A stretch of 45,083 bases of DNA from a bacterium (GCA_021833065.1 JAKBGO010000004.1:1-45083); one strand, 5' to 3'. Counted from the stretch's first letter, positions 3,920-29,456 are shown. Translations and numbers: made by a program. Notes: generated from the sequence alone by a model not told the origin.

Positions 3920-5186
3920 AATCGATGAACTGATTGCCGAGTTTTGCCCAGATGGGGTTGGTTTTTTTAAACTTTCAGAAATTGCAGAAATCTCTGGCGC
4001 AGGTGTCGATAAGAAGATAGTTTCTGGTGAAAAGAGTGTCATCTTATTGAACTACATGGACGTCTACCGAAATCCAAAGTTAACCGTTGGCATTCCGACC
4101 ATGCAAGTGTCGGCGACTGATAAAAAAATGAACCAATGTAACGTCTTAAAAGGTGATGTTTTTATCACTCCCAGCTCAGAGGTTAAGAATGAGATTGGCT
4201 TTTCTGCCGTAGCGTTGGAAGACATGCCGGGAACAGTCTACTCCTACCACATCATGAGAGTGAGGTTGAACGAACCAGATTTTATGAAATCACAGTTCAT
4301 AAACTATCTCTTTCGATCCGATATATTGCAAAAGGAAATAAGCAAGCAAGCAAAAGGCTTGACGAGGTTCGGACTGACAAAAACGCAATGGGAGCAGCTA
4401 AGGATCCCCGTGCCGCCAATCGAAGTACAGCGCGAGATTGTGCGCTTACTAGACACATTTACGGAGCTAGAAGCAGAGCTAGAAGCAGAGCTAGAAGCAG
4501 AGCTGGATGCTAGAAAAAAACAATATGCATTTTACAGAAATCAGCTTTTTACATTTGACGAGTCGAGGCTGGCAACACGGACAACCATGTCTCATATCTC
4601 AAAAAGGATCTATTCAGGTGGAACTCCCAAAACAAATAAAACTGAATATTGGGAGAACGGTACAATCCCATGGATGAGCTCGGGTGAGGTAAATCTAGGA
4701 ACAGTGTATAAAACTGAAAAACTTATTTCTGAGATTGGATTTAAAAATAGTAGTGCAAAGTGGGTTCCAAAAAATTCTGTCGTTATTGCACTAGCAGGAC
4801 AAGGGAAAACTCGCGGAATGGTTGCTAGAACGAGAATAGATTTGACAACAAATCAGTCGCTGGCATCATTAACATTTGACAGAGAAAAGGTCAATGCCGA
4901 CTACGTATTTCATTTTCTTAAATCACAATATCAACAATTAAGACAAGTATCCTCTGGGGATGGAACTCGTGGTGGCTTGAATCTCCAGATGATCTCAAAT
5001 TATGGAATACCTATTCCATCAATAAATGAGCAAAATCGCATCGTTTCAATCCTAGATAAGTTTGATAAATTAACAACTGACATCTCAGAAGGCCTGCCTG
5101 CTGAGATAAATGCTCGCCGTAAACAATATGAGTACTACCGCAATAAACTACTGACATTCAAGGAGCTAGCTTGTGTCAAAGTATGA
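3912..5186 (+). CDS. hsdS: Type I restriction-modification system, specificity subunit HsdS
   Basis: This is the DNA-recognition subunit of the type I complex. I place the start at ATG 3912 (MSKIDELIAEFCPDGV), which overlaps the hsdM stop by 8 nt, rather than the track start at 3891; this gives 424 aa. There are two target recognition domains. TRD1 covers about residues 15-175. A central conserved helix contains ELEAELEAELEAELDARKKQ, the first TRD-spacer copy. TRD2 (about 215-385) starts at SHISKRIYSGGTPKTNK and is followed by the second conserved spacer ending ARRKQYEYYRNKLLTF. The conserved helices repeat (ARKKQYAFYRNQL versus ARRKQYEYYRNKL), as expected for the two-fold HsdS design. The central spacer holds a 12-bp tandem repeat. 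TRDs are AT-rich whereas the central helix DNA is ~57% G+C, indicating domain shuffling. Confidence 0.95.
   Translation: MSKIDELIAEFCPDGVGFFKLSEIAEISGAGVDKKIVSGEKSVILLNYMDVYRNPKLTVGIPTMQVSATDKKMNQCNVLKGDVFITPSSEVKNEIGFSAVALEDMPGTVYSYHIMRVRLNEPDFMKSQFINYLFRSDILQKEISKQAKGLTRFGLTKTQWEQLRIPVPPIEVQREIVRLLDTFTELEAELEAELEAELDARKKQYAFYRNQLFTFDESRLATRTTMSHISKRIYSGGTPKTNKTEYWENGTIPWMSSGEVNLGTVYKTEKLISEIGFKNSSAKWVPKNSVVIALAGQGKTRGMVARTRIDLTTNQSLASLTFDREKVNADYVFHFLKSQYQQLRQVSSGDGTRGGLNLQMISNYGIPIPSINEQNRIVSILDKFDKLTTDISEGLPAEINARRKQYEYYRNKLLTFKELACVKV
4464..4511 (+). repeat. 12-bp in-frame tandem repeat in the HsdS central spacer
   Basis: GAGCTAGAAGCA occurs three times in perfect tandem (4464-4475, 4476-4487, 4488-4499) with a fourth diverged unit GAGCTGGATGCT (4500-4511). 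Each encodes ELEA (ELDA in the last), from codon 185 of hsdS. In EcoR124I-family HsdS the number of 4-residue repeats (TAEL) between the TRDs sets the spacer length of the bipartite DNA target. This repeat has the same position, unit size and helical character, so copy-number slippage could change target spacing. Confidence 0.85.
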
Positions 5187-8100
5187 TGTAGTAGCCGAGA
5201 ACCCTCATAGTACTGTCGTTGCAGAGTATGTCCCCGCCGTTCGCAGAGCTAGTGACTACCAAAGTGAGTCAGAGCTTGAACAGGCACTTATTAAACAACT
5301 TGAGAATCAAGCCTATGAATACATAAAGATCGATAGCGAAGAAAGCTTAATATCTAACTTGAGGAAGCAATTAGAGAAACTTAATAACTATCAGTTTAGT
5401 GATAAGGAGTGGCAAAGATTTAGTACTGAGTATCTTATTAATAAAGCAGATAACATTGAGGAAAAAACTAGCAAGATTCAAGAAGATAATCGCTACACGT
5501 TAAAACTTGATAATGGCACACCAAAAAACATAACAATAATAGATAAGGTCAACATTCATAACAATAGCCTACAAGTCATAAACCAATATGAGATTGAAGG
5601 AGTAAGAGCTAACCGTTATGACGTAACCATACTAGTTAATGGCTTGCCACTAGTTCACATTGAGCTTAAACGTAGAGGTGTTGACCTAAAAGAAGCTTTT
5701 AACCAGATAAATCGTTATCACCGAGATAGCTTCTGGGCGGGTAGCGGTTTATTTGAATATATACAACTATTTGTTATTAGTAACGGTACTCTCACAAAAT
5801 ATTACAGTAACACTACTCGCTCTAAACATGTCAAAGAAGCCGGTAACCTGAAGAGTAAAAGTAAGAAAACAAGCAACAGTTTTGAATTCACTAGCTGGTG
5901 GGCTGACGCAGATAATAAGCCTATTACTGAACTTATGGACTTTGCTCAAACCTTCTTCGCAAAACATTCACTTCTTAACATAATTACCAAGTACTGTGTA
6001 TTTAACGCAGATAAAGAACTGCTCGTAATGAGGCCTTACCAGATCGTAGCTACTGAGAGAATCTTAAATCGAATTGAAGTCAGCACTAATTATAAAAAGT
6101 TAGGCAGCATAGATGCTGGTGGCTTTATTTGGCATACAACTGGTTCGGGCAAAACATTAACTAGTTTCAAGACAGCACAAATCGCAAGCAAACTAGACTA
6201 CATAAACAAAGTCTTATTTGTAGTAGATAGAAAAGATCTCGACTACCAAACTATGAAAGAATATGACAAGTTTGAAAAAGGTGCCGCAAACAGCAATACC
6301 AGCACAGCTAAGCTAGCAAGACAATTAGAAGACCCTTCTGCTCGAATTATTATCACTACCATTCAGAAACTAGATAAATTCATTAAATCTAACCAAGGTC
6401 ATAAGATTTTTACCGACCATATAGTTTTAATATTTGATGAGTGTCATAGATCTCAATTCGGGGATATGCATCATTCAATTACGTCTGCATTTAAAAATTA
6501 CCACCTATTTGGTTTTACTGGCACTCCAATATTTGCAAAAAATATTTCAACTGGCGGTAGAGCTGACCTTAAAACCACCGAGCAGACTTTTGGAGATAAG
6601 TTACATACCTACACGATCGTTAATGCTATAACCGACAAAAATGTCTTGCCATTCCGTATTGATTATATTCGTACCGTTAAAGAAGCTGACAATATTGACG
6701 ATGAACAGGTTAGAGCCATTGATACTGAAGCCATTCTTAGCGCCCCCGAACGTATTACTAAGGTTGTTGAATATATACGGGATCACTTCGATCAAAAAAC
6801 TAAGAGGAATAATACCTATGAATTTAGGTCCACTCAAAATATAGGTGAAGTTGTTAATAGTAAAGATCGCTTAGCAATCGATGAGATAAAGGAAAGAGTA
6901 CGTCTCAGTGGCTTCAATTCAATCTTTGCCGTCAGCTCGATTGATACCGCCAAAAAATATTATCTTGAATTTAAGAACCAGCAAGCTAACGCACTGGAGA
7001 TCTCTAAACTTAAAGTAGCTACTATCTTTAGTTATGGAGTTAATGAGGACGAGGATTTACTCGATAACTTAGAGGATGAAAACTCAGACAGCACAGATCA
7101 ACTAGATATAGCATCCCGTGACTTTCTTGAAAATGCTATCAAGGACTACAATATACTATTTACAACTAACTACGACACCTCGGCAGATAAGTTCCAAAAC
7201 TACTATAAAGACGTAAGCCTGAGGATGAAAAATCGTGAGATCGATCTTCTAATTGTCGTTAATATGTTCCTTACTGGTTTTGACGCTACTACACTAAACA
7301 CATTATGGGTGGATAAAAAACTACGACTACACGGACTTCTTCAAGCCTATTCTAGAACTAACCGTATCCTTAATTCAGTAAAAACTTTTGGTAACATCGT
7401 TAGTTTTCGAAACCTTGAAAAAGCAACCAATGATGCTCTTGCCCTTTTCGGCGATAAAGAGGCAAGTGGAATAGTATTACTTAGGTCTTATTCTGAGTAT
7501 TACAACGGGTATGAAAGTGATGGGAAGCATATATTTGGCTACAAGGAAATTGTTGCTGAGCTACTAAATCGCTTTCCAATTGGACAACCAATAATCGGTG
7601 AGCAAAATCAGAAAAACTTTATAAAGCTTTACGGGGGAATCCTTCGTGGTAGGAATATCCTGTCTAGTTTCGATGAATTTGTCGGAAATGAAATCTTAAC
7701 ACCCAGGGATATACAAGATTATCACAGTGTTTACATAAACTTGTATAACGAGTTCCGAAATCAAAGCGACGGCGACAAGGAAAATGTTAACGATGATATA
7801 GTCTTTGAAATGGAACTTATTAAACAAGTGGAAATTAACATAGATTACATCATAGAGCTTATTCGTAAGTATCATGATAGTAACCAAGAGGACAAAGAAT
7901 TGCTTGTAGATATCAATAAAGCAATCGATTCTAGTATTGAACTTCGCAATAAAAAAGACCTAATCGAACAGTTTATAAGTTCACTTAATCCAACTTCATC
8001 CATCGATGATGACTGGCACACATTTGTCGATGCAAAAAAACTCGAGGAACTTGATAGAATCATAGCTGAGGAAAATCTTGATCATGACGAAACATATAAA

Positions 8101-8283
8101 TTTATAGAAAATGCATTCCGAGACGGGGCTGTTCAGTCAACTGGAACAGCAATAACAAAAATATTGCCTCCAGTTTCTCGATTCTCACAAAACAATGAAA
8201 GAGGAATTAAACGTGAATCAGTATTAGATAAACTCACTAATTTCTTTAACAGATTCTTTGATATTTCTAGCGGTAAATTATAA
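5173..8283 (+). CDS. hsdR: Type I restriction-modification system, restriction/translocase subunit HsdR
   Basis: This is the ATP-dependent DNA translocase and endonuclease subunit, 1036 aa, the usual HsdR length. The N-terminal nuclease domain shows the PD-(D/E)XK pattern in RYDVTILVNG...HIELKRRG (about residues 148-169). The SF2 helicase follows with Walker A TGSGKT (from 323), DECH box (422-425), motif III FTGTP and motif VI QAYSRTNR. A C-terminal helical region presumably docks onto the methylase. The start is GTG 5173, with a strong AAGGAG seven nt upstream, inside the end of hsdS (14-nt overlap). The stop codon touches the stop of the convergent minus-strand gene. No disruption is visible, so the system looks restriction-competent. 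Confidence 0.96.
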   Translation: MSKYDVVAENPHSTVVAEYVPAVRRASDYQSESELEQALIKQLENQAYEYIKIDSEESLISNLRKQLEKLNNYQFSDKEWQRFSTEYLINKADNIEEKTSKIQEDNRYTLKLDNGTPKNITIIDKVNIHNNSLQVINQYEIEGVRANRYDVTILVNGLPLVHIELKRRGVDLKEAFNQINRYHRDSFWAGSGLFEYIQLFVISNGTLTKYYSNTTRSKHVKEAGNLKSKSKKTSNSFEFTSWWADADNKPITELMDFAQTFFAKHSLLNIITKYCVFNADKELLVMRPYQIVATERILNRIEVSTNYKKLGSIDAGGFIWHTTGSGKTLTSFKTAQIASKLDYINKVLFVVDRKDLDYQTMKEYDKFEKGAANSNTSTAKLARQLEDPSARIIITTIQKLDKFIKSNQGHKIFTDHIVLIFDECHRSQFGDMHHSITSAFKNYHLFGFTGTPIFAKNISTGGRADLKTTEQTFGDKLHTYTIVNAITDKNVLPFRIDYIRTVKEADNIDDEQVRAIDTEAILSAPERITKVVEYIRDHFDQKTKRNNTYEFRSTQNIGEVVNSKDRLAIDEIKERVRLSGFNSIFAVSSIDTAKKYYLEFKNQQANALEISKLKVATIFSYGVNEDEDLLDNLEDENSDSTDQLDIASRDFLENAIKDYNILFTTNYDTSADKFQNYYKDVSLRMKNREIDLLIVVNMFLTGFDATTLNTLWVDKKLRLHGLLQAYSRTNRILNSVKTFGNIVSFRNLEKATNDALALFGDKEASGIVLLRSYSEYYNGYESDGKHIFGYKEIVAELLNRFPIGQPIIGEQNQKNFIKLYGGILRGRNILSSFDEFVGNEILTPRDIQDYHSVYINLYNEFRNQSDGDKENVNDDIVFEMELIKQVEINIDYIIELIRKYHDSNQEDKELLVDINKAIDSSIELRNKKDLIEQFISSLNPTSSIDDDWHTFVDAKKLEELDRIIAEENLDHDETYKFIENAFRDGAVQSTGTAITKILPPVSRFSQNNERGIKRESVLDKLTNFFNRFFDISSGKL

Positions 8284-19773: not shown

Positions 19774-19835
19774 AATTTCTATTCTGAGTAATCAATTAAC
19801 TACAACACACCAGAATATATTAAACTAGATTTCTA

Positions 19836-19931
19836 AAAATTTTATCTTCATCTATTAGTTTTCTTATTTCTTTTATATCTATTAATATATCTTCGTTTAA
19901 GATTATATTAAGGAACTGCCTCTCGAGCCAG
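19836..19931 (-). repeat. Punctuating degenerate repeat, copy A
   Basis: On the minus strand this reads WLERQFLNIILNEDILIDIK followed by EIRKLIDEDKIFRNLV and a stop. It is the best-preserved of four related sequences (also at 23378, 26721 and 29374). The upstream part of the 69-aa track ORF runs through a terminator hairpin and is not credible coding sequence, so I treat it as a remnant of the 3' end of a lost gene or a dispersed element. Confidence 0.6.
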
Positions 19932-19953
19932 ACCAAGCAGTGAAAAAGGGTGG

Positions 19954-19978
19954 CCGGGTTCCTAGACCCGGTTTTTTT
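19954..19978 (+). terminator. Rho-independent terminator
   Basis: The stem CCGGGT (19954-19959) and ACCCGG (19966-19971) enclose the loop TCCTAG and are followed by seven T (19972-19978). It lies 180 nt after the methyltransferase stop and is the first clear terminator of the rightward biosynthetic operon. Confidence 0.85.
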
Positions 19979-20207
19979 ATTATAATCAAAGTACCTCTTA
20001 TCTGTTAGACGGTTCGAATCCAGTTCCATTACTTTGAATTATGCCATGTTATCGATGAACCGAGAAATAAACCTGTATGTACTTGTTTGTCTCTATTGTT
20101 TGGTTCTAGGAATGACCGATTAGCCTTGATGATTGAACTGGTGAAAAAGCAAACGGGTTTCGCGAGCTATTATTCATTTATAGCGATAGTTTTAGCTTAA
20201 AAAGTTT
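19979..20207. other. Non-coding stretch with tRNA T-arm-like and inverted sequences
   Basis: I see no gene between the terminator and the metallophosphoesterase. An inverted pair TCAAAGTA (from 19986) and TACTTTGA (from 20030) encloses GGTTCGAATCCAGTTCC, which looks like a tRNA T-loop but has no complete tRNA around it. A related string GGTTCTAATCCAGTCCC occurs at 21454. These could be tRNA or attachment-site remnants, or chance. Confidence 0.3.
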
Positions 20208-20849
20208 CTATTTTAAATACGTCTTTGAGAATTTATTGCCATTAGTAATCTCTAATACTGAGCCGTCACCAAAACTACTACCGTCGGGAAACGTAGAGAA
20301 TGTATCTATACACCACACATTATGTTTAACTTCATGACAGGTTTTGGAAGGAGTGTGTCCAAATACCTGAGGTATATTTTTGTATGTCGTATTACTATTT
20401 GGTCGCGCCCAGATAGGACTTGAGTTATTCCATAACCCAATAACATCTTCTGAACCAGACCACTCATTAGTTATCCCAGCATGAGAATAAGATACGTCAT
20501 CGATTTTGATAATAACAGGTAGGCTAATCAACCACTCTTTGAGATCTTTATTTTCAGGTATATCGATTAAGATGTGAGTTGTTGGATTATAACCAGTCTG
20601 AAATGATGGTGTATCGTGAACATAAATATAATCATGGTTTCCCATAACGAGCTCAACCTTGCCCTGATTTTTAGCCTGCAAATTTTTTAGCGCCTTCCAA
20701 GTACTTATGGTATTTTGCGGACTGGCACTAAAGTCATCCGCATAATCGCCACAAAAAATTACCTTATCGTAGTCTTTGATAACATTTGTAATTTTATCGA
20801 TAAGCCAGATTTTGGTATGAACATCGCCAATTGCCAATACTTTCGCCAT
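20208..20849 (-). CDS. Calcineurin-like metallophosphoesterase
   Basis: This is a 213-aa phosphoesterase of the calcineurin-like family, hydrolysing phosphomonoester or diester bonds with a di-metal centre. The motifs run in order: AIGDVH (residues 6-11), FCGDYADD, VMGNHDY, SYSHAGIT and VFGHTPS. I use the ATG at 20849 (MAKVLAIGDVH), which lies one base after the stop of the toxin gene; the longer track ORF only reads backwards into that gene. It forms an operon with the upstream toxin-antitoxin pair. It may be a passenger gene or take part in RNA or nucleotide handling linked to the toxin. The substrate cannot be told from sequence. Confidence 0.9.
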   Translation of the reverse strand: MAKVLAIGDVHTKIWLIDKITNVIKDYDKVIFCGDYADDFSASPQNTISTWKALKNLQAKNQGKVELVMGNHDYIYVHDTPSFQTGYNPTTHILIDIPENKDLKEWLISLPVIIKIDDVSYSHAGITNEWSGSEDVIGLWNNSSPIWARPNSNTTYKNIPQVFGHTPSKTCHEVKHNVWCIDTFSTFPDGSSFGDGSVLEITNGNKFSKTYLK

Positions 20850-20850
20850 G

Positions 20851-21192
20851 CTAACCGCGCAATTTGCGTATGCGTTCCCGTACCGATTCCTGATACTGAG
20901 CAGGATCTTGCATCTGATGGTAGGCACGAACAGCAATAACCTCATAACGATCATCATCCACAAGATAAATAATTGCGACTTTGTGATTATTCATCTGCAC
21001 TTTTCGGACATCTGGATCTTCTTTAAACAATGCATTAGCACGGGGGAGGTTTTCTAAGTTAGCTACAGTTTCCATAGCTTCATCAAAAAACTTTGTGGCA
21101 GATTCTGCATCAACTAATTCTTCATAAAATGCCATTAGTTCAGCAATATCATTCTCGGCGTCTTCTGTAAGATTGACGCTATACTTTTGCAC
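20851..21192 (-). CDS. ParE/RelE-family toxin
   Basis: This is a 113-aa protein of the ParE/RelE toxin fold. N-terminal YSVNLTEDAENDIAELMAFY is the usual first strand and helix, followed by RKVQMNNHKVAIIYLVDDDRYEVIAVRAYHQ, with the strand pattern and basic residues of ParE-type plasmid-stabilisation proteins. GTG 21192 is preferred over the track TTG 21198: AGGAG sits 7 nt before the GTG but only 1 nt before the TTG. The start overlaps the antitoxin gene by 14 nt, a standard antitoxin-first arrangement. RelE-type members cut mRNA and ParE-type members poison gyrase; this sequence is closer to ParE in pattern, but the target is not certain. Confidence 0.85.
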   Translation of the reverse strand: MQKYSVNLTEDAENDIAELMAFYEELVDAESATKFFDEAMETVANLENLPRANALFKEDPDVRKVQMNNHKVAIIYLVDDDRYEVIAVRAYHQMQDPAQYQESVRERIRKLRG

Positions 21193-21343
21193 CAGCAAGC
21201 TCCTGATATTTCTTTAGAATATCTTCCTTGGCTTGGATAAGTGGTATACGATTTTTAGGTTTTTTAGCTAATTTAATACGTCGATCCAACTCAAGTTGAA
21301 ACTCTTTACTGTTTTCATCGACGTTAATGACTTTGCTTCTCAT
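21179..21343 (-). CDS. Small antitoxin partner of the ParE/RelE toxin
   Basis: This 54-aa gene is too short for the track. It runs from ATG 21343 to a TAG at 21181-21179, overlapping the toxin start by 14 nt. The translation MRSKVINVDENSKEFQLELD continues into a basic helix with IKLAKKPKNR and ends YQELAGAKV. Size, position before the toxin and the mixed acidic/basic pattern fit an antitoxin, possibly of a minimal type lacking a classic DNA-binding domain. No family can be assigned by eye. The small gene contains AGGAG for the toxin, so the two are translationally coupled. Confidence 0.7.
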   Translation of the reverse strand: MRSKVINVDENSKEFQLELDRRIKLAKKPKNRIPLIQAKEDILKKYQELAGAKV

Positions 21344-21461
21344 AATTGTTTTATTATATCACATTTGTCTCAGTAAATATACTCAAAAACATCACAAATA
21401 ACGGATATAATCTAACCTAAAACAGGCTTAAAATTTAAGCGCTAATTAAGTTTGGTTCTAA

Positions 21462-21662
21462 TCCAGTCCCCCGGAGAGATCTGGTGAGTCTGGGATTAGT
21501 TATTGTAAGGGTAATAGTCCCGGAGCTTTAGATATTTATACAAGAGGATCTTACCTCGATTTGACTAACGAGCGACTTGAATCAACAAGAGAAGAAATGC
21601 AAAGATTAGGTTTTAAACCATTATCTAAAGGCTTGGCCTCAATTCTTCACCCGATGCCCTAA
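21462..21662 (+). pseudogene. 3' fragment of an unrecognised gene
   Basis: There is an open frame of 66 codons without a start. It reads SGESGISYCKGNSPGALDIY, then RGSYLDLTNERLESTREEMQ, and ends LSKGLASILHPMP before TAA. The amphipathic, compositionally balanced peptide looks like real protein sequence, but there is no start codon or promoter, and an in-frame stop lies just upstream inside GGTTCTAATCC. I interpret it as the tail of a deleted gene in the turnover zone. The family is not recognised. Confidence 0.45.
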
Positions 21663-21757
21663 ATAAAACAGATATTTCTAGTCCCCATATTATGCTCAAG
21701 CTCTTACCCGATAAGAAGGATTTCAAATAGCTTCATCTAATGCTATAGTGGGAACAT

Positions 21758-22285
21758 ATGAACCTAATACTTTTGCCTGGCAATAGTAAAAGAAATAAAA
21801 CATGGATCGAAAATGTTGATGCGAGATTACAAAAATATTTCAAAACAACATACAGGCAAAACTATTCTCATTGGGATAAGGGTGAGCCTGAAATAGACCT
21901 TAGTTTTGAATTAGAAAAACTTAGTCAAAATGCATCTAATCTTAAACCTTATGTTGTCTTTGCCAAGTCAGTTGGTGTGATACTTGCTTTAAAAGCCATA
22001 TATGAAAATAAAATGGTAGTCTCATGGTGTCTGTTTGCAGGAATACCTCTTGAGTTAGTAAAAAATGAGAACATTGATCTCAAGAAGTGGTTAAATGCAA
22101 TTAGCTGTCCAATATATATAATCCAAAACGATTCAGACCCGGCTGGTACTTATAAAGATGTTAAGAGTTACATAAGTGATATTGATAGTCCCAGTATAAA
22201 TTTAATTGAAACACCGGGCGAGACTCATAATTATGATGACATAGATTTATTTGAAAGACTCGTAAAGGGCATTCTAAGTATCTAA
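21758..22285 (+). CDS. Small alpha/beta-hydrolase-like protein
   Basis: This is a 175-aa protein of the alpha/beta-hydrolase fold, close in size to RBBP9/YdeN-type serine hydrolases. N-terminal MNLILLPGNSKRNKTWIENV gives strand 3 and the oxyanion region. VVFAKSVGVILAL is the nucleophile elbow (AKSVG, with Ser as likely nucleophile). IYIIQNDSDPAG carries the acid and GETHNYDDI the His. The first Gly of the elbow is Ala, which is tolerated in the fold. The start ATG 21758 follows TATAGT by 8 nt, a leaderless pattern. The frameshifted Nudix gene begins 26 nt downstream. The natural substrate is unknown. Confidence 0.75.
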   Translation: MNLILLPGNSKRNKTWIENVDARLQKYFKTTYRQNYSHWDKGEPEIDLSFELEKLSQNASNLKPYVVFAKSVGVILALKAIYENKMVVSWCLFAGIPLELVKNENIDLKKWLNAISCPIYIIQNDSDPAGTYKDVKSYISDIDSPSINLIETPGETHNYDDIDLFERLVKGILSI

Positions 22286-22310
22286 TAACCTATTAAAAGC
22301 GAACAACGTA

Positions 22311-22734
22311 ATGTACAAAATGGTGAATAAACATTCAGCCGGCGGGATAGTAATAAAAAAAGGGGAAAGTACTAACTATCTCCTGGACTACAAAAAACTA
22401 TATCGCCTTTCCTAAAGGAGGGGTTGAAGACGGTGAGACAAGTGAGCTTGCAGCCGTTAGGGAAGTTCTCGAAGAAACCGGATACAAAACCAGAATTATA
22501 GCACCTTTAGGTTCATGGACTTATGAGTTTGAGGAAAACGGTGAAGATTACAGAAAAACTGTCGACTACTATCTAATGGAAATATTAGACGACAAGTTGC
22601 CAATACCCAACAGACTTTCTACTGAGAGATTTGAAAATTTATGGCTTACTATTGAAGATGCTAGGTCAAAACTAACTTTTAACGATTCGAGGGAAGCTTT
22701 AGAGTTGGCGGTGAACAGAATTAAGAACAAATAA
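22311..22734 (+). pseudogene. Nudix hydrolase with single-base frameshift
   Basis: The frame from ATG 22311 encodes MYKMVNKHSAGGIVIKKG and then breaks. One frame over, the sequence continues as KVLTISWTTKNYIAFPKGG, then VEDGETSELAAVREVLEETG, which holds a complete Nudix box, and ends ...AVNRIKNK at 22734. Removing one G from GGGG at 22362-22365 (in AAAAAAAGGGGAAAG) restores a continuous 140-aa Nudix protein. The total length then is 141 codons including stop. This is either recent inactivation by slippage in a homopolymer, programmed slippage, or a sequencing error. Nudix enzymes cleave nucleoside diphosphates linked to other groups; residues of the box are all intact. Confidence 0.9.
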
Positions 22735-22915
22735 ATTAGCTAGGAAAAAAGAAGAAAAACCGGGTCTAAATTTAAACAACATAACAGTGGTAGTTATAAG
22801 CGAATATAAATATACATATAATGATAAAGCTAAACTGTAGGATGCTTACTAGTTTCAGATCTGTTTGCTAAGACATTTTATTTGCTTATACTTATCTATC
22901 ATCGATGATATAGAT

Positions 22916-23335
22916 TTAATTAAGTATCTTTTTTTCTGGAAAGACCCAGTATTTGTACCAGAGCCAACTCCAAAAGGTAAAAAATATACCGGATATGAAG
23001 AGACCGATATAAGGAGATATACCAATTTCTTTAAGTCCATAAATCATAAGGTAGTCGAGTATAAAACCGATACTTTCAATAAATACATACCTTCCAGCGT
23101 GTCGCATCTCGCTTAAATGGATCTGATCTGAAAATGCCCATAGCCTTTGTATGACATAATTCGTACTCCAACCAATTACATCGCCGAAAATCTTGGAAAG
23201 AAACCATCCCCAGTGAAATAAACTATAACCAACAGCAAATAGTCCATATCCAACCCAGAAATATATACTACCTCCTACCAAATACTTCAAAAATCGTTTA
23301 GTATCTTTGTGTTTTAATAATGACTTAAAAGGCAT
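22916..23335 (-). CDS. GtrA-family membrane protein, copy 1
   Basis: This is a 139-aa polytopic membrane protein of the GtrA family. Four hydrophobic segments and the signature RFLKYLVGGSIYFWVGYGLF at the N-terminus identify it, with NYVIQRLWAFSD after helix 2 and WYKYWVFPEKK at the end. GtrA proteins are thought to move lipid-linked sugars across the membrane. A near-identical copy lies at 28923-29339 (about 7 differences over the first 136 residues). Both are followed upstream on the minus strand by the degenerate WLDEKF-like repeat, so a larger unit was duplicated. The small plus-strand ORF 22865-23116 is its shadow. Confidence 0.92.
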   Translation of the reverse strand: MPFKSLLKHKDTKRFLKYLVGGSIYFWVGYGLFAVGYSLFHWGWFLSKIFGDVIGWSTNYVIQRLWAFSDQIHLSEMRHAGRYVFIESIGFILDYLMIYGLKEIGISPYIGLFISGIFFTFWSWLWYKYWVFPEKKILN

Positions 23336-23377
23336 TTAATATACTATATACTACTTGAGGTTCCTTCTTTATCTATT

Positions 23378-23452
23378 CAACTTCTTAGCTCAATAATATC
23401 TACAAATAGTTCTTCGTTTACGATTATATTAATAAACTTTTCGTCTAGTCAG
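23378..23452 (-). repeat. Punctuating degenerate repeat, copy B
   Basis: The minus strand reads LDEKFINIIVNEELFVDIIE followed by LRS and stop; the Trp codon of the consensus is TGA here. It sits about 40 nt upstream of GtrA copy 1 in the same orientation and is related to copies A, C and D. Confidence 0.6.
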
Positions 23453-23505
23453 GCAATATAATTTATAATGTTTTTGACATATTTTTAATAATGTATTAAA
23501 ACTTG

Positions 23506-23533
23506 TTGATTCCACCATCAAACGGTCTATAAT
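23506..23533 (+). promoter_or_regulatory. Promoter of the ABC-F gene (leaderless)
   Basis: TTGATT (23506-23511), 16-nt spacer, TATAAT (23528-23533). The start codon at 23541 is 7 nt after the -10 box, so the transcript would begin at or next to the ATG. The track start at 23532 lies inside the -10 box and is therefore unlikely. Confidence 0.65.
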
Positions 23534-23540
23534 GTTGATT

Positions 23541-25154
23541 ATGCTACAAGTAGAGAATGTAGGATATGAAATCGAAGGACATCGCATATTTCAAGACGTC
23601 ACATTTGCAATAAACAAAGGTGATAAGATTGGTTTAGTCGGCCCCAATGGTGCCGGTAAAACTACATTGCTTGAGATAATTGCTGGTCATATTCAACCTA
23701 CGGAAGGTAGCGTTATCAGAGGAGATTATGAAGTCGGGATTCTTCCTCAGGATTTAACTCAATGGCTAGGAAGAACCGTATACGAATTCGTGGAAGAGGT
23801 TACCGGAGTTACCCAGGTAAGGACTGATTATGAAGAAAGTTGCGCAAAAATTGAAACGGATTCAAGTAGCAAGAACTTAGAAGAATATGAATACGCTTTA
23901 GAAAAATACAATAAATACAATGTAGCAAATTTCGACAATACACTTGAACGAGCCCTTGCCTTGGCTGGAATTAAAAATATTGACGTACATCACGACTTAG
24001 ATTTATTTTCAGGTGGTCAAAAAACTCGTATTGCACTAGCAGCATTGTTTGCAGCTAATTATGATGTTGTACTGCTTGATGAACCGACAAATAACTTAGA
24101 TGATCAGGGAATAGTTATACTTGAGAAATTTATCAAAAACTCACGTTCAGCGTTTACAATGATTTCTCATGATCGACGTTTTTTAAGAAATGCTTCGTCT
24201 CGTATCATAGAACTCTTAGGAGGAGAAAAAGGAATTAATCAATATGGTCTTGGTTATGATGAATACGTTATTAGTCGAGAAAAAGAACGGGAAGCTTCGG
24301 CTAAAAGATACGACCAATATGAAACCGAAAGAAAAAGACTTCGAAAAGCTGCTATAAAAGCTAGCGGTCGCTCTGATTCAGCCTCAGGGCAGCGTTCCCG
24401 ATCGGATAATGATAAATTAAGTTCTAATTTTAGGGGCGAAAAAGCTGCATCAAGACACGCCCGTCAAGCCCAAGGAATTATATCTAGGTTAGAAAGGTTA
24501 GAACCCCCTGAGAGACCTGAAGATGAAATAGCTTTGCTTTTTTCGCTGAATGAAGTTGATCGAAAAAAAGTTAGACTCCTAACGGTTGACAGTTTGACTG
24601 TGAAATATGAAAACAGCGATAGAGTATTTGGTCCTCTTTCTTTAAATATAGTAAGCGGTGATAGAGTATCCATAACTGGAAACAATGGAGTAGGTAAAAC
24701 TACTCTACTAAAAGCAATCGTTGGAGAACAACCTATTTATAGCGGTTTTATAAAATTGGGAACGGAAACAGAGCTAATATACATGGATCAGCGTCAATCA
24801 GTTCCATTGCCAAACAGTAACGCAATCGAAAACCTTAGGAACCTTTCGCCAAGTATTGACCTCCATGAAGCGATTCGACTACTTATTCGATTTAATCTAA
24901 ATAGAGAAGTTATAGATACCGTACCAGCATATCAATTAAGTGGCGGTGAAAGAGCAAAAATAATTCTTGCATCCATGGCAGCAAACAAGGCAAACCTTTT
25001 GGTCATGGATGAACCAACAAATAATTTAGATATACCTACGATTGAAGGACTTGAAACTGCACTTAGAGGTTATAGAGGGAGCATTATAGTGGTTTCTCAT
25101 GATAGAGATTTTTTAAAAAACCTCAATATTAATCACAAAATACACATAAATTAA
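23541..25154 (+). CDS. ABC-F family ATP-binding protein
   Basis: This is a 537-aa soluble protein with two ABC ATPase domains and no membrane segment, the ABC-F class that acts on the ribosome in translation or antibiotic protection. NBD1 has Walker A GPNGAGKTT, signature FSGGQ and Walker B VVLLDEPTNNLD. The linker (about residues 245-325) is long, charged and rich in Lys, Arg and Ser. NBD2 has GNNGVGKTT, LSGGERAKI and LLVMDEPTNNLD. Both ATP sites look active. The length matches ABC-F proteins. It has its own leaderless promoter. Near a biosynthetic locus it could be a self-protection factor, but it may equally be a translation factor such as an EttA relative. Confidence 0.93.
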   Translation: MLQVENVGYEIEGHRIFQDVTFAINKGDKIGLVGPNGAGKTTLLEIIAGHIQPTEGSVIRGDYEVGILPQDLTQWLGRTVYEFVEEVTGVTQVRTDYEESCAKIETDSSSKNLEEYEYALEKYNKYNVANFDNTLERALALAGIKNIDVHHDLDLFSGGQKTRIALAALFAANYDVVLLDEPTNNLDDQGIVILEKFIKNSRSAFTMISHDRRFLRNASSRIIELLGGEKGINQYGLGYDEYVISREKEREASAKRYDQYETERKRLRKAAIKASGRSDSASGQRSRSDNDKLSSNFRGEKAASRHARQAQGIISRLERLEPPERPEDEIALLFSLNEVDRKKVRLLTVDSLTVKYENSDRVFGPLSLNIVSGDRVSITGNNGVGKTTLLKAIVGEQPIYSGFIKLGTETELIYMDQRQSVPLPNSNAIENLRNLSPSIDLHEAIRLLIRFNLNREVIDTVPAYQLSGGERAKIILASMAANKANLLVMDEPTNNLDIPTIEGLETALRGYRGSIIVVSHDRDFLKNLNINHKIHIN

Positions 25155-25244
25155 GTTATCCTATTGACTTTAGGTATATAATCGAATCAAGTACTGATGT
25201 GGTACGTTAAATAATTTAAATGTGTGATATATAGGAGGGGTACT

Positions 25245-25832
25245 ATGGGAGGAATAAATTGTAATATTCCACAGCCACCGAGTAATATAAAAATTAAAGA
25301 TTCTAAAGAATTCTACGATTCATACACAAATAATTTAGCAAATTACAGTAAAGCACTATTTCAAGGCATTGCAGATTTTTATAATTCTAATGTTCAAATA
25401 GAAATTGCCGTCTTAAGTAATGATAAAAACATCGATAATGCTCTTCAATCAATGCTAAAATGCGAGAAGAACTTCATATTAGCCCAATCGTTTCTTGGGA
25501 GCGTCTCGTCGATATGGAATCTGATTTCATTTGAACAAATTGATTTTGACAATCAGCTGGAAAATTTAGGTTTGGTTTTGCAATCATTGCCAAAGTCTAT
25601 CTCAGCAATAAAATCAATTATTGAATCCGATTCCGAATCAGTTCAGTCATATATATGGAGTAGATCCTACATAACAAAAGCGTTTACAGAAGTTGCCTCA
25701 AAGATTAATGATGCGTCTGATTGGCAGATTCATTTTGCCGAGGAGACAACTAAAATTAATTTATATAGCATAACTCAAGATATTGAAACTAATGTCAGTC
25801 AAAATTTAGCAAAATCATCTTTATCTATTTAA
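25245..25832 (+). CDS. Unrecognised helical protein upstream of YcaO-like gene
   Basis: This is a 195-aa protein that I do not recognise. The start ATG 25245 has a strong AGGAGG 6 nt upstream; the track start 25224 precedes this site. The sequence begins MGGINCNIPQPPSNIKIKDS and is then almost entirely helical and acidic, without membrane segments, catalytic motifs or cysteine clusters beyond Cys6 and one internal Cys. It lies 34 nt before the YcaO-like gene on the same strand and is likely co-expressed with it. One of the few genes here with a textbook Shine-Dalgarno, suggesting it needs high expression. It could be a partner or substrate of the YcaO-like protein, but nothing in the sequence proves this. 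Confidence 0.6.
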   Translation: MGGINCNIPQPPSNIKIKDSKEFYDSYTNNLANYSKALFQGIADFYNSNVQIEIAVLSNDKNIDNALQSMLKCEKNFILAQSFLGSVSSIWNLISFEQIDFDNQLENLGLVLQSLPKSISAIKSIIESDSESVQSYIWSRSYITKAFTEVASKINDASDWQIHFAEETTKINLYSITQDIETNVSQNLAKSSLSI

Positions 25833-25866
25833 AACTAAAGTATCCTAAGCATACTTAATACTTAAG

Positions 25867-26688
25867 ATGAAGTACATGAAAGTTGATACTCCTGCTATTG
25901 GTGTAGTTACGCTTCGATTGAATACGGATGAAAATTCATTTATGCCCGCAGCAACTGGTTTATCTGGAGATAAACTAGTCGAGTTAAGGGCGTCAATGGA
26001 AAAATTAGAAATTGAAGCTTCTGTAGATACAAAGCCGGGCTACATTTCTCGAGCAGCTGGTCCGAAAAAGAGTATGGCAATAAAAAATGCTAGATATGAG
26101 GCTATCGAAAGAATGTCTCTATCGTGTTGGTGGTCTATGGGTAAATCGACTCGTTGGAAAGTTAATACGAAAATTACCAAAAGACTTTTGAGAACTTATT
26201 TTCCTAGTGAAGATTTTCAACTTAATATTGGTTTTGTAGAACCTGTTTGTGGCACTGGTTATGTGGCCGTATCTTTACTACAAAATACAAAACTATTTCC
26301 TTATGCTGTGCTGGGGAGTTGCTACTCAAGTAGTCCAAAATCTGCTATGAAAAAAGCATTTTTTGAGTCTATCCAATCTTGGTGTGCAACAAATTGGTTG
26401 CGTAAAAACAACAAAAAACTAATGCCTTACTGGGATTTAGGTGAAATTCGTAGACGATCAGTAGAAATTTTATCCTCACCAGATCTAGATTTTGAAAATG
26501 AAACGAATTTTGATAATCAAAAATTACTTGAATTCATACCGATAAAAAATATTCAGGTTAAACCCCATTCAGGAAAATACGTGGCATGGGTTTATCTAGA
26601 TAAATCTATAGATTTGAATTTTGAAATAACAAAGTTAGTAAAAAGAAAAAAAGAGACTACCAAAATTTTTTCGGAATATAATTATTAA
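25867..26688 (+). CDS. Short YcaO-like protein
   Basis: This is a 273-aa protein with two blocks resembling the YcaO ATP-binding core. The first is KNARYEAIERMS (the SxxxExxER region). The second is VLGSCYSSSPKSAMKKAFFE followed by SIQSW, like the Gly-rich segment and helix ending in AxxExxQ. YcaO enzymes activate peptide amide bonds with ATP to make azolines, thioamides or amidines. This one is shorter than the usual ~400 aa or more and lacks the C-terminal PxPxP, so activity may be altered or it may be an inactive relative. No TfuA, dehydrogenase or precursor peptide with a Cys/Ser-rich core is visible nearby. An alternative start is ATG 25876. An inverted repeat AAGTAT...ATACTT lies just upstream. 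Confidence 0.5.
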   Translation: MKYMKVDTPAIGVVTLRLNTDENSFMPAATGLSGDKLVELRASMEKLEIEASVDTKPGYISRAAGPKKSMAIKNARYEAIERMSLSCWWSMGKSTRWKVNTKITKRLLRTYFPSEDFQLNIGFVEPVCGTGYVAVSLLQNTKLFPYAVLGSCYSSSPKSAMKKAFFESIQSWCATNWLRKNNKKLMPYWDLGEIRRRSVEILSSPDLDFENETNFDNQKLLEFIPIKNIQVKPHSGKYVAWVYLDKSIDLNFEITKLVKRKKETTKIFSEYNY

Positions 26689-26720
26689 ACAACTTATTGT
26701 CTATATAAAATAAATTAGTT

Positions 26721-26785
26721 ATCTACTTTATATCAATTAACATATTTTCATTTAGGATTATATTAAGGAACTTCTCGTCGAGCCA
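26721..26785 (-). repeat. Punctuating degenerate repeat, copy C
   Basis: The minus strand reads WLDEKFLNIILNENMLIDIK followed by a stop. It is the copy closest to the presumed consensus over its length. It lies between the YcaO-like gene and the PQ-loop gene, without a GtrA gene next to it. Confidence 0.6.
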
Positions 26786-26864
26786 AAATTCTTATGCTTA
26801 AATGACTTCTGTTAATAGTGATATCTTTATTACGTTTCGTTCATTCCAATGTTAAGCTAAGTGA

Positions 26865-27455
26865 GTGATAACAAAAACAATAATTGAAAACGTACTAATT
26901 ATTTCTGCTGAGGGATTCTGGCTGGTATCCAATTATTCTCAGCTACAGAAACTCATAAAGACCCGCAAACTTAAGGGTTTGTACGCCCCGAACCAGGTAC
27001 TGAATGCAGCAGGAAACATAGCATGGGCAACATATTTCTTTTCTCGACATTTGTACGTACCATTCATCACCAACCTAACCATGATGCTTATCACATTGAC
27101 TACTTTGTTTTATCTTCTTGGGAATAAAAAACAATTTACGAAGGGAATTATTGCCATCGCAGTCATAGGGCCACTAACAAGTTATCTTCTAGTTGCATAT
27201 CCATCTATGTCAGGCTGGGTCGGTGTTGTCTACAACGCAATTGCTTCCACACCTTGGTTCGTACACGTTCTTCGCACAAAACGAGTGAGTGGTATTTCCG
27301 AACGTTCAATTTATTTTTCATTATCCGCAATGCTCACAACACTATCATATGGAATACTTATTTCTTCGATACCTCTTATCACAGGTTGTGTAATAGGATT
27401 GACATTCAATTTGATAATAATGCGCTACTATTATCACTATCGATTGCATGATTGA
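26865..27455 (+). CDS. PQ-loop repeat (SWEET/MtN3-like) membrane protein
   Basis: This is a 196-aa polytopic membrane protein with about six to seven hydrophobic segments and two PQ-loop-like units. The first is NYSQLQKLIKTRKLKGL, the second STPWFVHVLRTKRVSGIS. Each is followed by a helix with conserved small residues and Asn or Ser. This is the arrangement of SWEET/SemiSWEET sugar carriers and cystinosin-like transporters. The strict PQ pair is SQ in the first repeat and TP in the second, so substrate specificity is uncertain. The start is GTG 26865. It stands alone between punctuating repeat C and an alpha/beta-hydrolase fragment. Confidence 0.7.
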   Translation: MITKTIIENVLIISAEGFWLVSNYSQLQKLIKTRKLKGLYAPNQVLNAAGNIAWATYFFSRHLYVPFITNLTMMLITLTTLFYLLGNKKQFTKGIIAIAVIGPLTSYLLVAYPSMSGWVGVVYNAIASTPWFVHVLRTKRVSGISERSIYFSLSAMLTTLSYGILISSIPLITGCVIGLTFNLIIMRYYYHYRLHD

Positions 27456-27545
27456 TCAGGAAATACGTTTCAGAAGTTACAGATTCGTCCACTAGTAGGA
27501 GCCAAGCATAAGCACTTTGAAATAGGCACTTTATTATTTTGTTAA

Positions 27546-27719
27546 TATAAATATGTCACTAGATTTCTTATTCTGCACGGTACTGGCGGTTTACCAGACT
27601 CTAATTGGTTTACTTGGCTAAAGGACATACTAGTAAGCAGAGGATACGAAGTATGGCTTCCTCAACTCCCAAACTCAGAGAAACCAAATACAGAAACATA
27701 TACTAAATTCTTGTTATAA
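27546..27719 (+). pseudogene. N-terminal fragment of an RBBP9/YdeN-like serine hydrolase
   Basis: The frame has no usable start codon and encodes TRFLILHGTGGLPDSNWFTW, then LKDILVSRGYEVWLPQLPNS, ending KFLL at TAA 27717-27719. This is the typical N-terminus (HGTGG, DSNWFTWL) of RBBP9/YdeN-type alpha/beta hydrolases, which are ~180 aa; two thirds of the gene is gone. The stop overlaps the TATAAT box of the next Nudix gene, so the promoter of that gene was created from, or fused to, the broken end. Confidence 0.75.
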
Positions 27720-27727
27720 TTACACAG

Positions 27728-28129
27728 ATGAAAGAAGTCGCAAAACTAATTCTAAGAGATCAAAATGGTCTCTATTTATTGCTCTACAGAAACGACCATC
27801 CTGCTTTTGGTCAAGACCCCGATTTACCCGGAGGAACAATAGAAGAGGGCGAAGATCCAATCAAGGCGCTAATACGCGAAGTAAAAGAAGAAATCGGGAT
27901 TACACTTAACAGCAAATCCATAAAAAAACTTCATGAAAGTAACGAATACGATAAGGGAAATATTTATTACTTATACGAAGCAATGCATAAAGAAACACCC
28001 GTCATTACTATAAGCTGGGAACATAGTAGGTACAGTTGGTTAAGTCTTAGCGATTTCGCTGCCATAACCAACACGGCTATCGATAGATACATGCATATGG
28101 TGCACGACTATTTAGCACAAAAACAATAA
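27728..28129 (+). CDS. Nudix hydrolase
   Basis: This is a 133-aa Nudix enzyme. The box GGTIEEGEDPIKALIREVKE followed by EIGI is complete. An N-terminal strand MKEVAKLILRDQNGLYLLLY and DLPGG fit a nucleotide or nucleoside-diphosphate hydrolase. The start ATG 27728 is 7 nt after TATAAT (27715-27720), a leaderless gene. It is one of three Nudix genes within 8 kb. Substrate cannot be deduced; candidates range from oxidised nucleotides to NDP-sugars. Confidence 0.92.
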   Translation: MKEVAKLILRDQNGLYLLLYRNDHPAFGQDPDLPGGTIEEGEDPIKALIREVKEEIGITLNSKSIKKLHESNEYDKGNIYYLYEAMHKETPVITISWEHSRYSWLSLSDFAAITNTAIDRYMHMVHDYLAQKQ

Positions 28130-28191
28130 AAATAATAATAACCAATCATTATCTGTACTTCAAAAAAAATATTCTTTGATACTATAGAATC

Positions 28192-28881
28192 ATGAGGTCA
28201 GTTGGAGTAATTGGAGGTTTAGGTCCGGAAACAACAGCCGAGTTTTACTTGGAAGTGATTTTTGGATGCCAAAAAATAGATGATAGTGAGAGACCTTTGA
28301 TTGTAATATCTAGCGTTCCTTTAATTACCGAAATTGAACGCGAACTTATTGCCACGAATAAAGGTAAAGAACGTTACATACCTTTTTTGATTAGCGAAGC
28401 TAAAAGATTAGAAAAATCTGGGGTAGATTTTCTTGTCATGCCTTGTAATTCTTTGCATGTTTTTATTGAAGAGATAAGAAATTCGGTCAAGATTCCCGTC
28501 CTTAGTATTGTAGACGAAACAATAGCCTATCTGAAAAAAAATAAATTTCAAGAGATTGGTCTTATTTCAACTTCGGCGACTGTTGAAAACAAAGTCTATG
28601 AAAATGCCTTAGCAAAAAACAATATAAAGTTCATCGCCCCAAACGGACTGCAACGTGCAAAAATTAATAAAATTATCCAGCGATTGATTGAAGGACAGCA
28701 TCTAAACAGCGATAGAAACATAATTGAGTCTGTTGTTAAGGATATGGTTGATTTAAAAGTTAACTGTGTCGCTTTGGCATGTACGGATTTACAACTGTTA
28801 CTTCCAAGTAGCAGTGAAGTAAATATTTTTGACACTATGAAAATACTTGCCGATGCAACTATCCGTGAAATATTTGCATGA
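28192..28881 (+). CDS. Aspartate/glutamate racemase family protein
   Basis: This is a 229-aa PLP-independent racemase of the Asp/Glu/hydantoin superfamily. It begins with VGVIGGLGPETTAEFY and contains MPCNSLHVF with the first catalytic Cys, LSIVDET, and ALACTDLQLLL with the second Cys, so both acid/base thiols are present. The length is usual for aspartate racemases. These enzymes provide D-amino acids for the cell wall or for secondary metabolites. The start ATG lies 6 nt after TACTAT, with no Shine-Dalgarno. It is followed by the convergent GtrA copy 2. Confidence 0.9.
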   Translation: MRSVGVIGGLGPETTAEFYLEVIFGCQKIDDSERPLIVISSVPLITEIERELIATNKGKERYIPFLISEAKRLEKSGVDFLVMPCNSLHVFIEEIRNSVKIPVLSIVDETIAYLKKNKFQEIGLISTSATVENKVYENALAKNNIKFIAPNGLQRAKINKIIQRLIEGQHLNSDRNIIESVVKDMVDLKVNCVALACTDLQLLLPSSSEVNIFDTMKILADATIREIFA

Positions 28882-28922
28882 TCAATCTAATATTTATCTA
28901 TCATTGATGGTATAGATTTTAA

Positions 28923-29339
28923 TTAAGTATCTTTTTTTTCTGGAAAGACCCAATATTTGTACCAGAGCCAACTCCAAAAAGTAAAAAATATTCCGGATAT
29001 AAAGAGACCAATGTAGGGTGATATACCGATTTTTTTAAGTCCATAAATCATCAGATAATCAATAATAAAACCGATACTTTCAATAAATACATATCTTCCA
29101 GCGTGTCTCATCTCGCTTAAATGGATATGATCTGAAAATGCCCATAGTCTTTGTATAACATAATTCGAACTCCACCCAATAACATCACCGAAAATCTTTG
29201 ACGGAAACCATCCCCAGTGAAACAAGCTATAACCAACAGCAAATAGTCCGTATCCAACCCAGAAGTATATGCTTCCGCCAACCAAATATTTCAAAAATCG
29301 TTTAATATCTTTGTGTTTTAATAATGACTTAGTGGGCAT
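28923..29339 (-). CDS. GtrA-family membrane protein, copy 2
   Basis: This is a 138-aa GtrA-family membrane protein, about 95% identical to copy 1 at 22916-23335. Differences include Phe3Thr, Thr12Ile, Leu46Pro, Thr58Ser, Gln71His, Leu93Ile and Glu102Lys, plus the last residues. The DNA similarity continues beyond the gene on both sides: the 3' side shares ATCTATCAT..GATG.TATAGATT and the 5' side shares CAATATACTATATACTACTT-like sequence and then the punctuating repeat. This shows duplication of a segment of at least ~550 bp. Both copies are open and conservative in their changes, so both are probably functional. Confidence 0.92.
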   Translation of the reverse strand: MPTKSLLKHKDIKRFLKYLVGGSIYFWVGYGLFAVGYSLFHWGWFPSKIFGDVIGWSSNYVIQRLWAFSDHIHLSEMRHAGRYVFIESIGFIIDYLMIYGLKKIGISPYIGLFISGIFFTFWSWLWYKYWVFPEKKDT

Positions 29340-29373
29340 TCAATATACTATATACTACTTATGGCAATATCTT

Positions 29374-29456
29374 TATCTACTAGATTTATCATCTTTTTAA
29401 ATCTAAGAATATATCTCATCTGAAGATTATGAAAATGAACTATTTATCGAGCCAAT
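29374..29456 (-). repeat. Punctuating degenerate repeat, copy D
   Basis: The minus strand reads WLDK, stop, FIFIIFR, stop, DIFLDLKR, stop, still recognisable against copies A-C but with two in-frame stops. It lies ~35 nt upstream of GtrA copy 2, as copy B does for copy 1. It is the most decayed copy. Confidence 0.55.

What the first reader, a model, noticed from the sequence alone, without database searches (positions are those of the whole stretch)
19836..29456. Four same-orientation degenerate repeats punctuate a gene-turnover zone
Minus-strand copies at 19836, 23378, 26721 and 29374 read, where intact, W-L-[DE]-[ER]-[KQ]-F-[LI]-N-I-I-[LV]-N-E-x-x-[LF]-[IV]-D-I. They have independent stops and mostly coding-like substitutions. 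They are spaced 3.5, 3.3 and 2.7 kb apart. Each lies at a boundary between small accessory cassettes, and two sit upstream of duplicated GtrA genes. This resembles a cassette array grown by repeated recombination at a gene end, or remains of a protein lost four times.
Basis: partly seen in the sequence, partly recalled or inferred. Interest (0 to 1): 0.75.

Follow-up and report, generated by a model that had tools for sequence, protein, structure and literature searches.

The report
Fossil tRNA-end insertion marks, Saccharibacteria
The four repeats are broken-off tail ends of a small gene that a family of mobile DNA elements tears in two each time it inserts at the end of a transfer-RNA gene, so a row of them records successive insertions; an integrase of the serine type doing this at tRNA genes in bacteria appears not to have been described.

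Summary
The repeats are real: three beat all shuffles, and the fourth rests on a duplicated GtrA block. A fifth copy (93% DNA identity) lies beside tRNA-Asn on another contig of the same genome. Relatives across the order (Candidatus Saccharibacteria) carry same-orientation arrays of the same sequence.

Each copy begins with the reverse complement of the CCA end of a tRNA. Where a tRNA gene lies downstream, the copy matches that tRNA (25 pairs, 9 isotypes, 0 of 20,000 permutations as good). Complete elements in relatives carry a large serine recombinase (LSR) at the tRNA-proximal end. Its 3' end, or a short ORF behind it ("orfX"), runs in frame into the TGG of the tRNA end in 20 of 20 cases. 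The repeat is the detached C-terminal part of that reading frame.

So attP lies inside a gene. Integration at a tRNA 3' end splits it, and repeated integration leaves a row of C-terminal fossils. In the window, c1 replaces tRNA-Asn exactly at TGGCTC when compared with two sister genomes.

Catalysis by the LSR and the role of orfX are inferred. I class it as a new variant of a known kind.

The parts
19823..19930 (-). c1: intact orfX C-terminal part (WLERQFLNIILNEDILIDIKEIRKLIDEDKIFRNLV*). Its first nt TGGCTC (19930-19925) equal the reverse complement of the tRNA-Asn 3' end. Left end (attL-type) of an integrated element.
   Evidence: 96% identical to G001a from TGG onward with a different left neighbour
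23350..23448 (-). c2: decayed orfX C-terminal part (one TGA), directly upstream of GtrA
26678..26785 (-). c3: decayed orfX C-terminal part (one TAG)
29374..29456 (-). c4: strongly decayed orfX C-terminal part, directly upstream of the second GtrA
   Evidence: 8.1 bits, within the range of shuffles; supported by the c2/c4 GtrA block duplication
19953..19979 (+). Fossil tRNA terminator (GGCCGGGTTCCTAGACCCGGTTTTTTT) left of c1, homologous to the terminator next to tRNA-Asn in sister genomes G002 and G004
20001..20028 (+). tRNA-3'-end-like remnant (CTGTTAGACGGTTCGAATCCAGTTCC) beside the older junction, also found next to tRNA-Asn in G002 and G004
20208..21198 (-). ParE/RelE-type toxin gene and metallophosphoesterase gene. 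In G002 the same pair abuts tRNA-Asn-smpB; here it abuts c1.
22916..23335 (-). GtrA cargo gene behind c2
   Evidence: PF04138
28923..29339 (-). GtrA cargo gene behind c4 (duplicate of the c2 block)
   Evidence: 84% block identity
11171..19773 (.). Gene block inserted behind c1 (UDP-sugar dehydrogenase-, F420 ligase-, AdoMet synthetase-, glycosyltransferase-like), shared with G001 at 89-96% protein identity and not detected (last gene) in the other five genus genomes

Best explanation
The repeat is the C-terminal part of a small reading frame (orfX) that belongs to integrative elements of Candidatus Saccharibacteria carrying a large serine recombinase (LSR). In the free circular element the LSR gene is followed by orfX, or fused to it, and then by a nuclease gene (PLD-like or Mrr-like). 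The attachment site attP lies inside orfX and begins with a mimic of a tRNA 3' end (TGG + 3-9 matching acceptor nt). Recombination with the CCA end of the matching tRNA gene inserts the element and tears orfX in two. The N-terminal part, with the LSR, ends up beside the tRNA. The C-terminal part lies at the far end, next to the displaced old tRNA terminator. The tRNA itself stays intact and can be hit again, so elements stack between it and the older ones, all in one orientation. Each leaves one orfX C-terminal fossil. In this window c4, c3, c2 and c1 are four such left ends, and the copy on contig C34 beside tRNA-Asn-smpB is a fifth. Most interiors have lost the LSR and persist as cargo (GtrA, NUDIX, toxin-antitoxin, restriction-modification, sugar genes). 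SHOWN by sequence: the split reading frame, exact junctions, tRNA match, arrays and strain differences at the repeats. INFERRED: catalysis by this LSR, the order and timing of insertions, and the function of orfX (a directionality or licensing factor switched off by integration is my best guess).
For: (1) tRNA match: in 25 left-end/tRNA pairs of 9 isotypes, nt 4-11 match 5.64/8 against 3.46/8 when permuted (0 of 20,000); the own isotype is the unique best in 23 of 25. (2) LSR at the tRNA end: in 20 LSR loci with a tRNA on the opposite strand just behind the gene, the frame of the tRNA's TGG is open for 29-544 codons in 20 of 20 (other frames average 9.5 and 22). In 7 the LSR gene itself reads into the tRNA; in 13 it is a short coupled ORF. 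(3) Direct junctions: G006 LSR-orfX_N|TGGCTC-tRNA-Asn and G002:C2 LSR remnant-orfX_N|TGGCTC-orfX_C are nearly identical for 150 bp on the left and diverge right after TGGCTC. The left flank of c1 is homologous to the left flank of tRNA-Asn in G002 and G004 up to TGGCTC, and the right flank of c1 equals G001a at 96%. (4) Complete elements with both ends: G022 14.5 kb, G100 22 kb, G136 about 18.5 kb, G143 9.9 kb; G010 shows a full element followed by a second small one, with orfX unsplit at the junction, next to tRNA-Gln. (5) Same-orientation arrays of 4 and 5 copies ending at two tRNA-Gln genes in one single-contig genome. (6) LSR domains PF00239, PF07508 and PF13408. (7) Coding signal only behind the att core.
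Against: Contigs C5 (window) and C34 (tRNA-Asn) are not joined in this assembly, and 10 N hide what lies between the C34 copy and the tRNA, so the link rests on sister genomes. No LSR of this family was found in G000, which is about 84% complete. No free circular element was found in viral contigs. c4 is weak alone. For a second class of left ends (TGGTGACCC..., in front of Mrr genes) the LSR sits and points differently, and the scheme is not resolved there.
Confidence: 0.87

Rival explanations
1. Integron-like array: small gene cassettes inserted by a tyrosine recombinase at attC-like repeats.
For: Same-orientation arrays of short accessory gene units spaced 1-3 kb, mostly without an own recombinase.
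Against: No conserved fold in the repeat (0 predicted pairs). One main Xer-like tyrosine recombinase per genome, none listed inside the arrays. The repeat is coding and is the other half of a frame beside an LSR. Arrays end at tRNA genes, and the repeat start copies the tRNA.
Confidence: 0.03
2. Plain gene decay and tandem duplication: a protein gene was duplicated several times by homologous recombination and its copies decayed.
For: The c2-GtrA and c4-GtrA blocks are duplicates (84%); three copies have stops.
Against: Copies in many genera have a sharp left boundary at TGG with unrelated sequence upstream, usually no start codon, and a tRNA-specific first 6-12 nt. Strain differences fall exactly there.
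Confidence: 0.05
3. The nuclease next to the left end (PLD-like or Mrr-like) inserts the element, and the repeat is its leader peptide and end sequence.
For: These nucleases follow the tRNA-like left end in many genomes, often with overlapping stop and start codons.
Against: Complete elements have an LSR whose frame joins the repeat's frame. In that frame the repeat mostly lacks a start codon, which fits a detached 3' half better than a leader. Two unrelated nucleases occupy the same position, as cargo would.
Confidence: 0.05

Closest known systems
SSV1-type ('suicidal') integrases of archaeal viruses and plasmids (reviewed in PMC8371274)
   Same: The attachment site lies inside a gene at the integrase locus, a tRNA gene is the target, integration splits the gene, and fossils int(N)/int(C) mark old insertions.
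   Different: [quoted passage not shown] Here it is a large serine recombinase in bacteria, and only a C-terminal tail or a separate small ORF is cut off.
Integration-dependent immunity of mycobacteriophages (PMC9262239)
   Same: attP lies inside a gene next to and co-transcribed with the integrase gene; attB overlaps a tRNA gene; integration changes the protein made.
   Different: Tyrosine integrase with a 35-bp common core; the split gene is a repressor. Here: serine recombinase, 5-12 bp of tRNA match, function of the split ORF unknown. [quoted passage not shown]
tRNA-anchored genomic islands with tandem accretion (general knowledge; PMC2704930 came up)
   Same: Direct repeats of the tRNA 3' end, stacking of elements at one tRNA, decay of older ones.
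   Different: The marker that survives is a coding fossil of a split gene; the integrase is of the serine type; many isotypes are used by one family.
Integron cassette arrays
   Same: Same-orientation arrays of short gene units separated by a recombination-site repeat.
   Different: No IntI, no attC fold, anchored at a tRNA gene, boundary repeat is a coding fragment.

Membership tests
Large serine recombinase integrative element | Integrase with resolvase N-terminal, recombinase and zinc-ribbon domains | tested here: met
   PF00239, PF07508, PF13408 (zinc ribbon just under its cut-off) in the G022 LSR; family in 81 of 294 genomes of the order. Not found in G000 itself.
Large serine recombinase integrative element | attP next to the integrase gene, short common core with attB | tested here: met
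   Crossover bracketed within TGGCTC in G006 vs G002; tRNA match 5-12 nt
Large serine recombinase integrative element | Recombination catalysed by the enzyme | not testable with these tools
   needs an assay
SSV-type suicidal integrase | Attachment site inside the integrase gene so that integration splits it | tested here: met
   met in 7 genomes where the LSR frame reads into the tRNA; in 13 the split frame is a separate coupled ORF
SSV-type suicidal integrase | Tyrosine recombinase | tested here: not met
   enzyme is a serine recombinase; therefore not filed as a member
Integration-dependent phage immunity | Split gene is a repressor | tested here: inconclusive
   unsplit orfX has no Pfam or NCBIfam match and only a weak PHROG of unknown function
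Integron | IntI-type tyrosine integrase with the array | tested here: not met
   PF00589 hits: one main Xer-like per genome, none listed within the arrays
Integron | attC sites with conserved foldable structure | tested here: not met
   no consensus pairs
tRNA-anchored genomic island array | Direct repeat of the target tRNA 3' end at element boundaries | tested here: met
Integrative and conjugative element | Type IV secretion genes inside the element | tested here: inconclusive
   VirD4-like coupling protein confirmed by Pfam in G022; VirB4-, VirB6- and VirB2-like reading frames in G136 by eye only; none in the window

The most novel reading that the evidence does not exclude
A bacterial family of large serine recombinases that use the CCA ends of many different tRNA genes as target, with attP inside the recombinase gene or a co-translated partner, so that each integration inactivates a piece of its own machinery. 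Tandem insertion restores a chimeric partner gene, and left-behind halves let one read the order of insertions. Cargo units without a recombinase may be moved in trans by a neighbour's LSR, which would make a serine-recombinase counterpart of integron arrays.
Probability: 0.6. Interest if true: 0.85.

Novelty: new variant of a known kind. Interest (0 to 1): 0.74.

Why it matters
Self-disrupting integrases were stated to exist only in archaea and only as tyrosine recombinases (PMC8371274). Serine integrases of mycobacteriophages are reported not to use tRNA genes (PMC9262239). Here both statements meet counter-candidates in one widespread bacterial family. It explains a main route by which the tiny, host-dependent Saccharibacteria gain and lose accessory genes (toxin-antitoxin, NUDIX, restriction, sugar genes), and it gives a sequence tag for finding such islands in fragmentary genomes. 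The LSR family appears to have been retargeted among at least nine tRNA isotypes by changing a few att nucleotides, which is testable and of interest for serine-integrase tools.

Tried and rejected
RNA element: no Rfam match in the window, no conserved fold. Promoter (TTGGCT...TATAAC as -35/-10): many copies lack the -10-like bases, and the same nucleotides belong to the att core; dropped. Leader peptide starting at NTG of the tRNA end with a +1 frameshift: attractive because NTG is always present, but the LSR ORF joins the repeat in the TGG frame, and the first 33 nt show no frame preference. PLD or Mrr nuclease as the inserting enzyme: see rivals. Integron: see rivals. Search for intact copies in viral contigs: none. 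An exact DNA pattern over named genomes gave only 4 hits but supplied names (G027 is 'uncultured Candidatus Saccharibacteria'). At phylum level the C-terminal part was found only within the same class (7 of 332 genomes, six in the same order and one in another order of the class). The first protein alignment was too diverse for a contig-collection scan. A hit inside an ABC transporter gene (G018) was spurious.

Full report
CHECKING THE OBSERVATION. The window is one whole contig (C5) of a 664-kb, 84%-complete genome. c1 is an open 36-codon stretch; c2 and c3 have one stop each, and c4 several. A DNA profile built without c1 and the C34 copy scores c1 46.9, c3 29.9, c2 17.2 and c4 8.1 bits; the best of 200 dinucleotide shuffles of the window reaches 11.0. 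c4 is therefore accepted only because c4+GtrA duplicates c2+GtrA (84% over 540 bp). A fifth copy, 93% identical in DNA to c1, lies on contig C34 in front of tRNA-Asn and smpB.

RELATIVES. A protein profile finds the sequence in 24 of 294 genomes of the order. At phylum level it is found only within the same class. The organisms are Candidatus Saccharibacteria. Copies start sharply at TGG. Behind the first ~33 nt the repeat is coding: 25% of codon differences are synonymous in its frame against 8% and 5% in the other two. The first ~33 nt have no preferred frame. That is the signature of a recombination core followed by coding sequence. Same-orientation arrays occur in G208 (two arrays, 4 and 5 copies), G022, G013, G260 and G010.

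THE tRNA LINK. [quoted passage not shown] Over 25 pairs the match is 5.64 of 8 against 3.46 when pairings are permuted (0 of 20,000), and the own isotype is the unique best in 23. Hairpins left of the copies fit displaced tRNA terminators: the one left of c1 (19953-19979) is homologous to the terminator that stands next to tRNA-Asn in G002 and G004.

THE RECOMBINASE. Complete elements in relatives carry a large serine recombinase at the tRNA-proximal end. In 20 loci with a tRNA directly behind the LSR, the reading frame that runs into the tRNA's TGG is open in every case: 7 times it is the LSR itself, 13 times a short ORF (orfX_N, such as MSNQT..NR....LRSI|W) directly behind it. The repeat is the other half, orfX_C. 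In this frame it mostly has no start codon, and its stop codon often overlaps the start of the next gene, a PLD-like or Mrr-like nuclease. In G010 an unsplit orfX stands where a second, small element was added between an older complete one and tRNA-Gln. G136, G100, G022 and G143 have both ends. Coupling-protein and other T4SS-like frames in G022, G010 and G136 suggest conjugative elements.

JUNCTIONS. G006 (LSR-orfX_N|tRNA-Asn) and G002:C2 (LSR remnant-orfX_N|orfX_C) are nearly identical for 150 bp and part right after TGGCTC. In the window, c1's left side (toxin gene, metallophosphoesterase, tRNA remnant, terminator, GCTTGGTC) is the left side of tRNA-Asn in G002 (71% over 900 bp), and the last 120 bp also match G004. 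c1's right side equals G001a at 96%, while G001a's left neighbour is a different cassette. So the c1 boundary is shown from both sides: it is an insertion at the tRNA-Asn 3' end. Likewise G006 and G002 share [orfX_C-ATPase]-orfX_C and then differ.

MECHANISM. Shown: split frame, exact junctions, tRNA match, stacking, strain differences at the repeats. Inferred: that this LSR catalyses the reaction; that copies nearer the tRNA are younger (c1 and the C34 copy are intact, c2-c4 decayed, which fits); that LSR-less units are relics or are moved in trans; and that orfX is a directionality or licensing factor. Scaffolding of C5 next to C34 is inferred from sister genomes.

COMPARISON. The logic matches archaeal SSV-type suicidal integrases, but the enzyme is of the other recombinase class; the review says self-disrupting recombinases are found only in archaea (PMC8371274). 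attP inside a partner gene is known from mycobacteriophage integration-dependent immunity, with a tyrosine integrase; the same source says serine-integrase phages there do not use tRNA genes (PMC9262239). I found no paper on such elements in Saccharibacteria in the held library. The work on their type IV secretion systems holds neither 'integrase' nor 'recombinase' nor 'tRNA' (PMC12102498). Absence from this library is not proof of novelty.

Noticed in passing
L187, L188, L189 and others (in front of Mrr-like genes); left ends TGGTGACCC...: A second class of tRNA-like left ends carries a leader ORF in the other frame, starting at the NTG formed by the tRNA end (e.g. MVTHVDQTWNSVLRGLEQIDAAFDELMLDGEQ*). 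In G145, G177 and G190 the LSR is convergent with the Mrr gene instead of pointing at the tRNA. The scheme is unresolved.
   Followed up: partly
L005 4440-4777; also G226 and G130: tRNA-Asn(GTT) is interrupted after the anticodon by about 260 bp, group I intron-like, while sister genome G002 has it uninterrupted.
   Followed up: no
window 21448-21475: Another tRNA-Asn-like 3' fragment (GGTTCTAATCCAGTCCCCCGGA) on the + strand, possibly a further old junction without a recognisable orfX tail.
   Followed up: no
L005 1-4093: A different serine recombinase (1418-2677) with a DNA methyltransferase and a small HTH protein, prophage-like, just left of the C34 copy.
   Followed up: partly
L232 (G005:C95): Beside tRNA-Asn of G005 lies the end of a recombinase-like reading frame of another subfamily, so the same tRNA end seems to be used by several LSR lineages.
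   Followed up: no
window 23532-25154: ABC-F-type ATPase gene between c2 and c3; whether it protects ribosomes is untested.
   Followed up: no
window 2351-8283: Complete type I restriction-modification system at the far side of the accessory region.
   Followed up: no
window 22330-22735: NUDIX-like reading frame broken by a frameshift, flanked by other NUDIX genes (27728, 29524): repeated acquisition of NUDIX genes in this region.
   Followed up: no
genomes of the order: PLD-like (61 of 294 genomes) and Mrr-like membrane nucleases (51 of 294) recur as the first gene of these elements, often with the start overlapping the orfX stop; they weakly resemble parts of known anti-phage proteins.
   Followed up: partly
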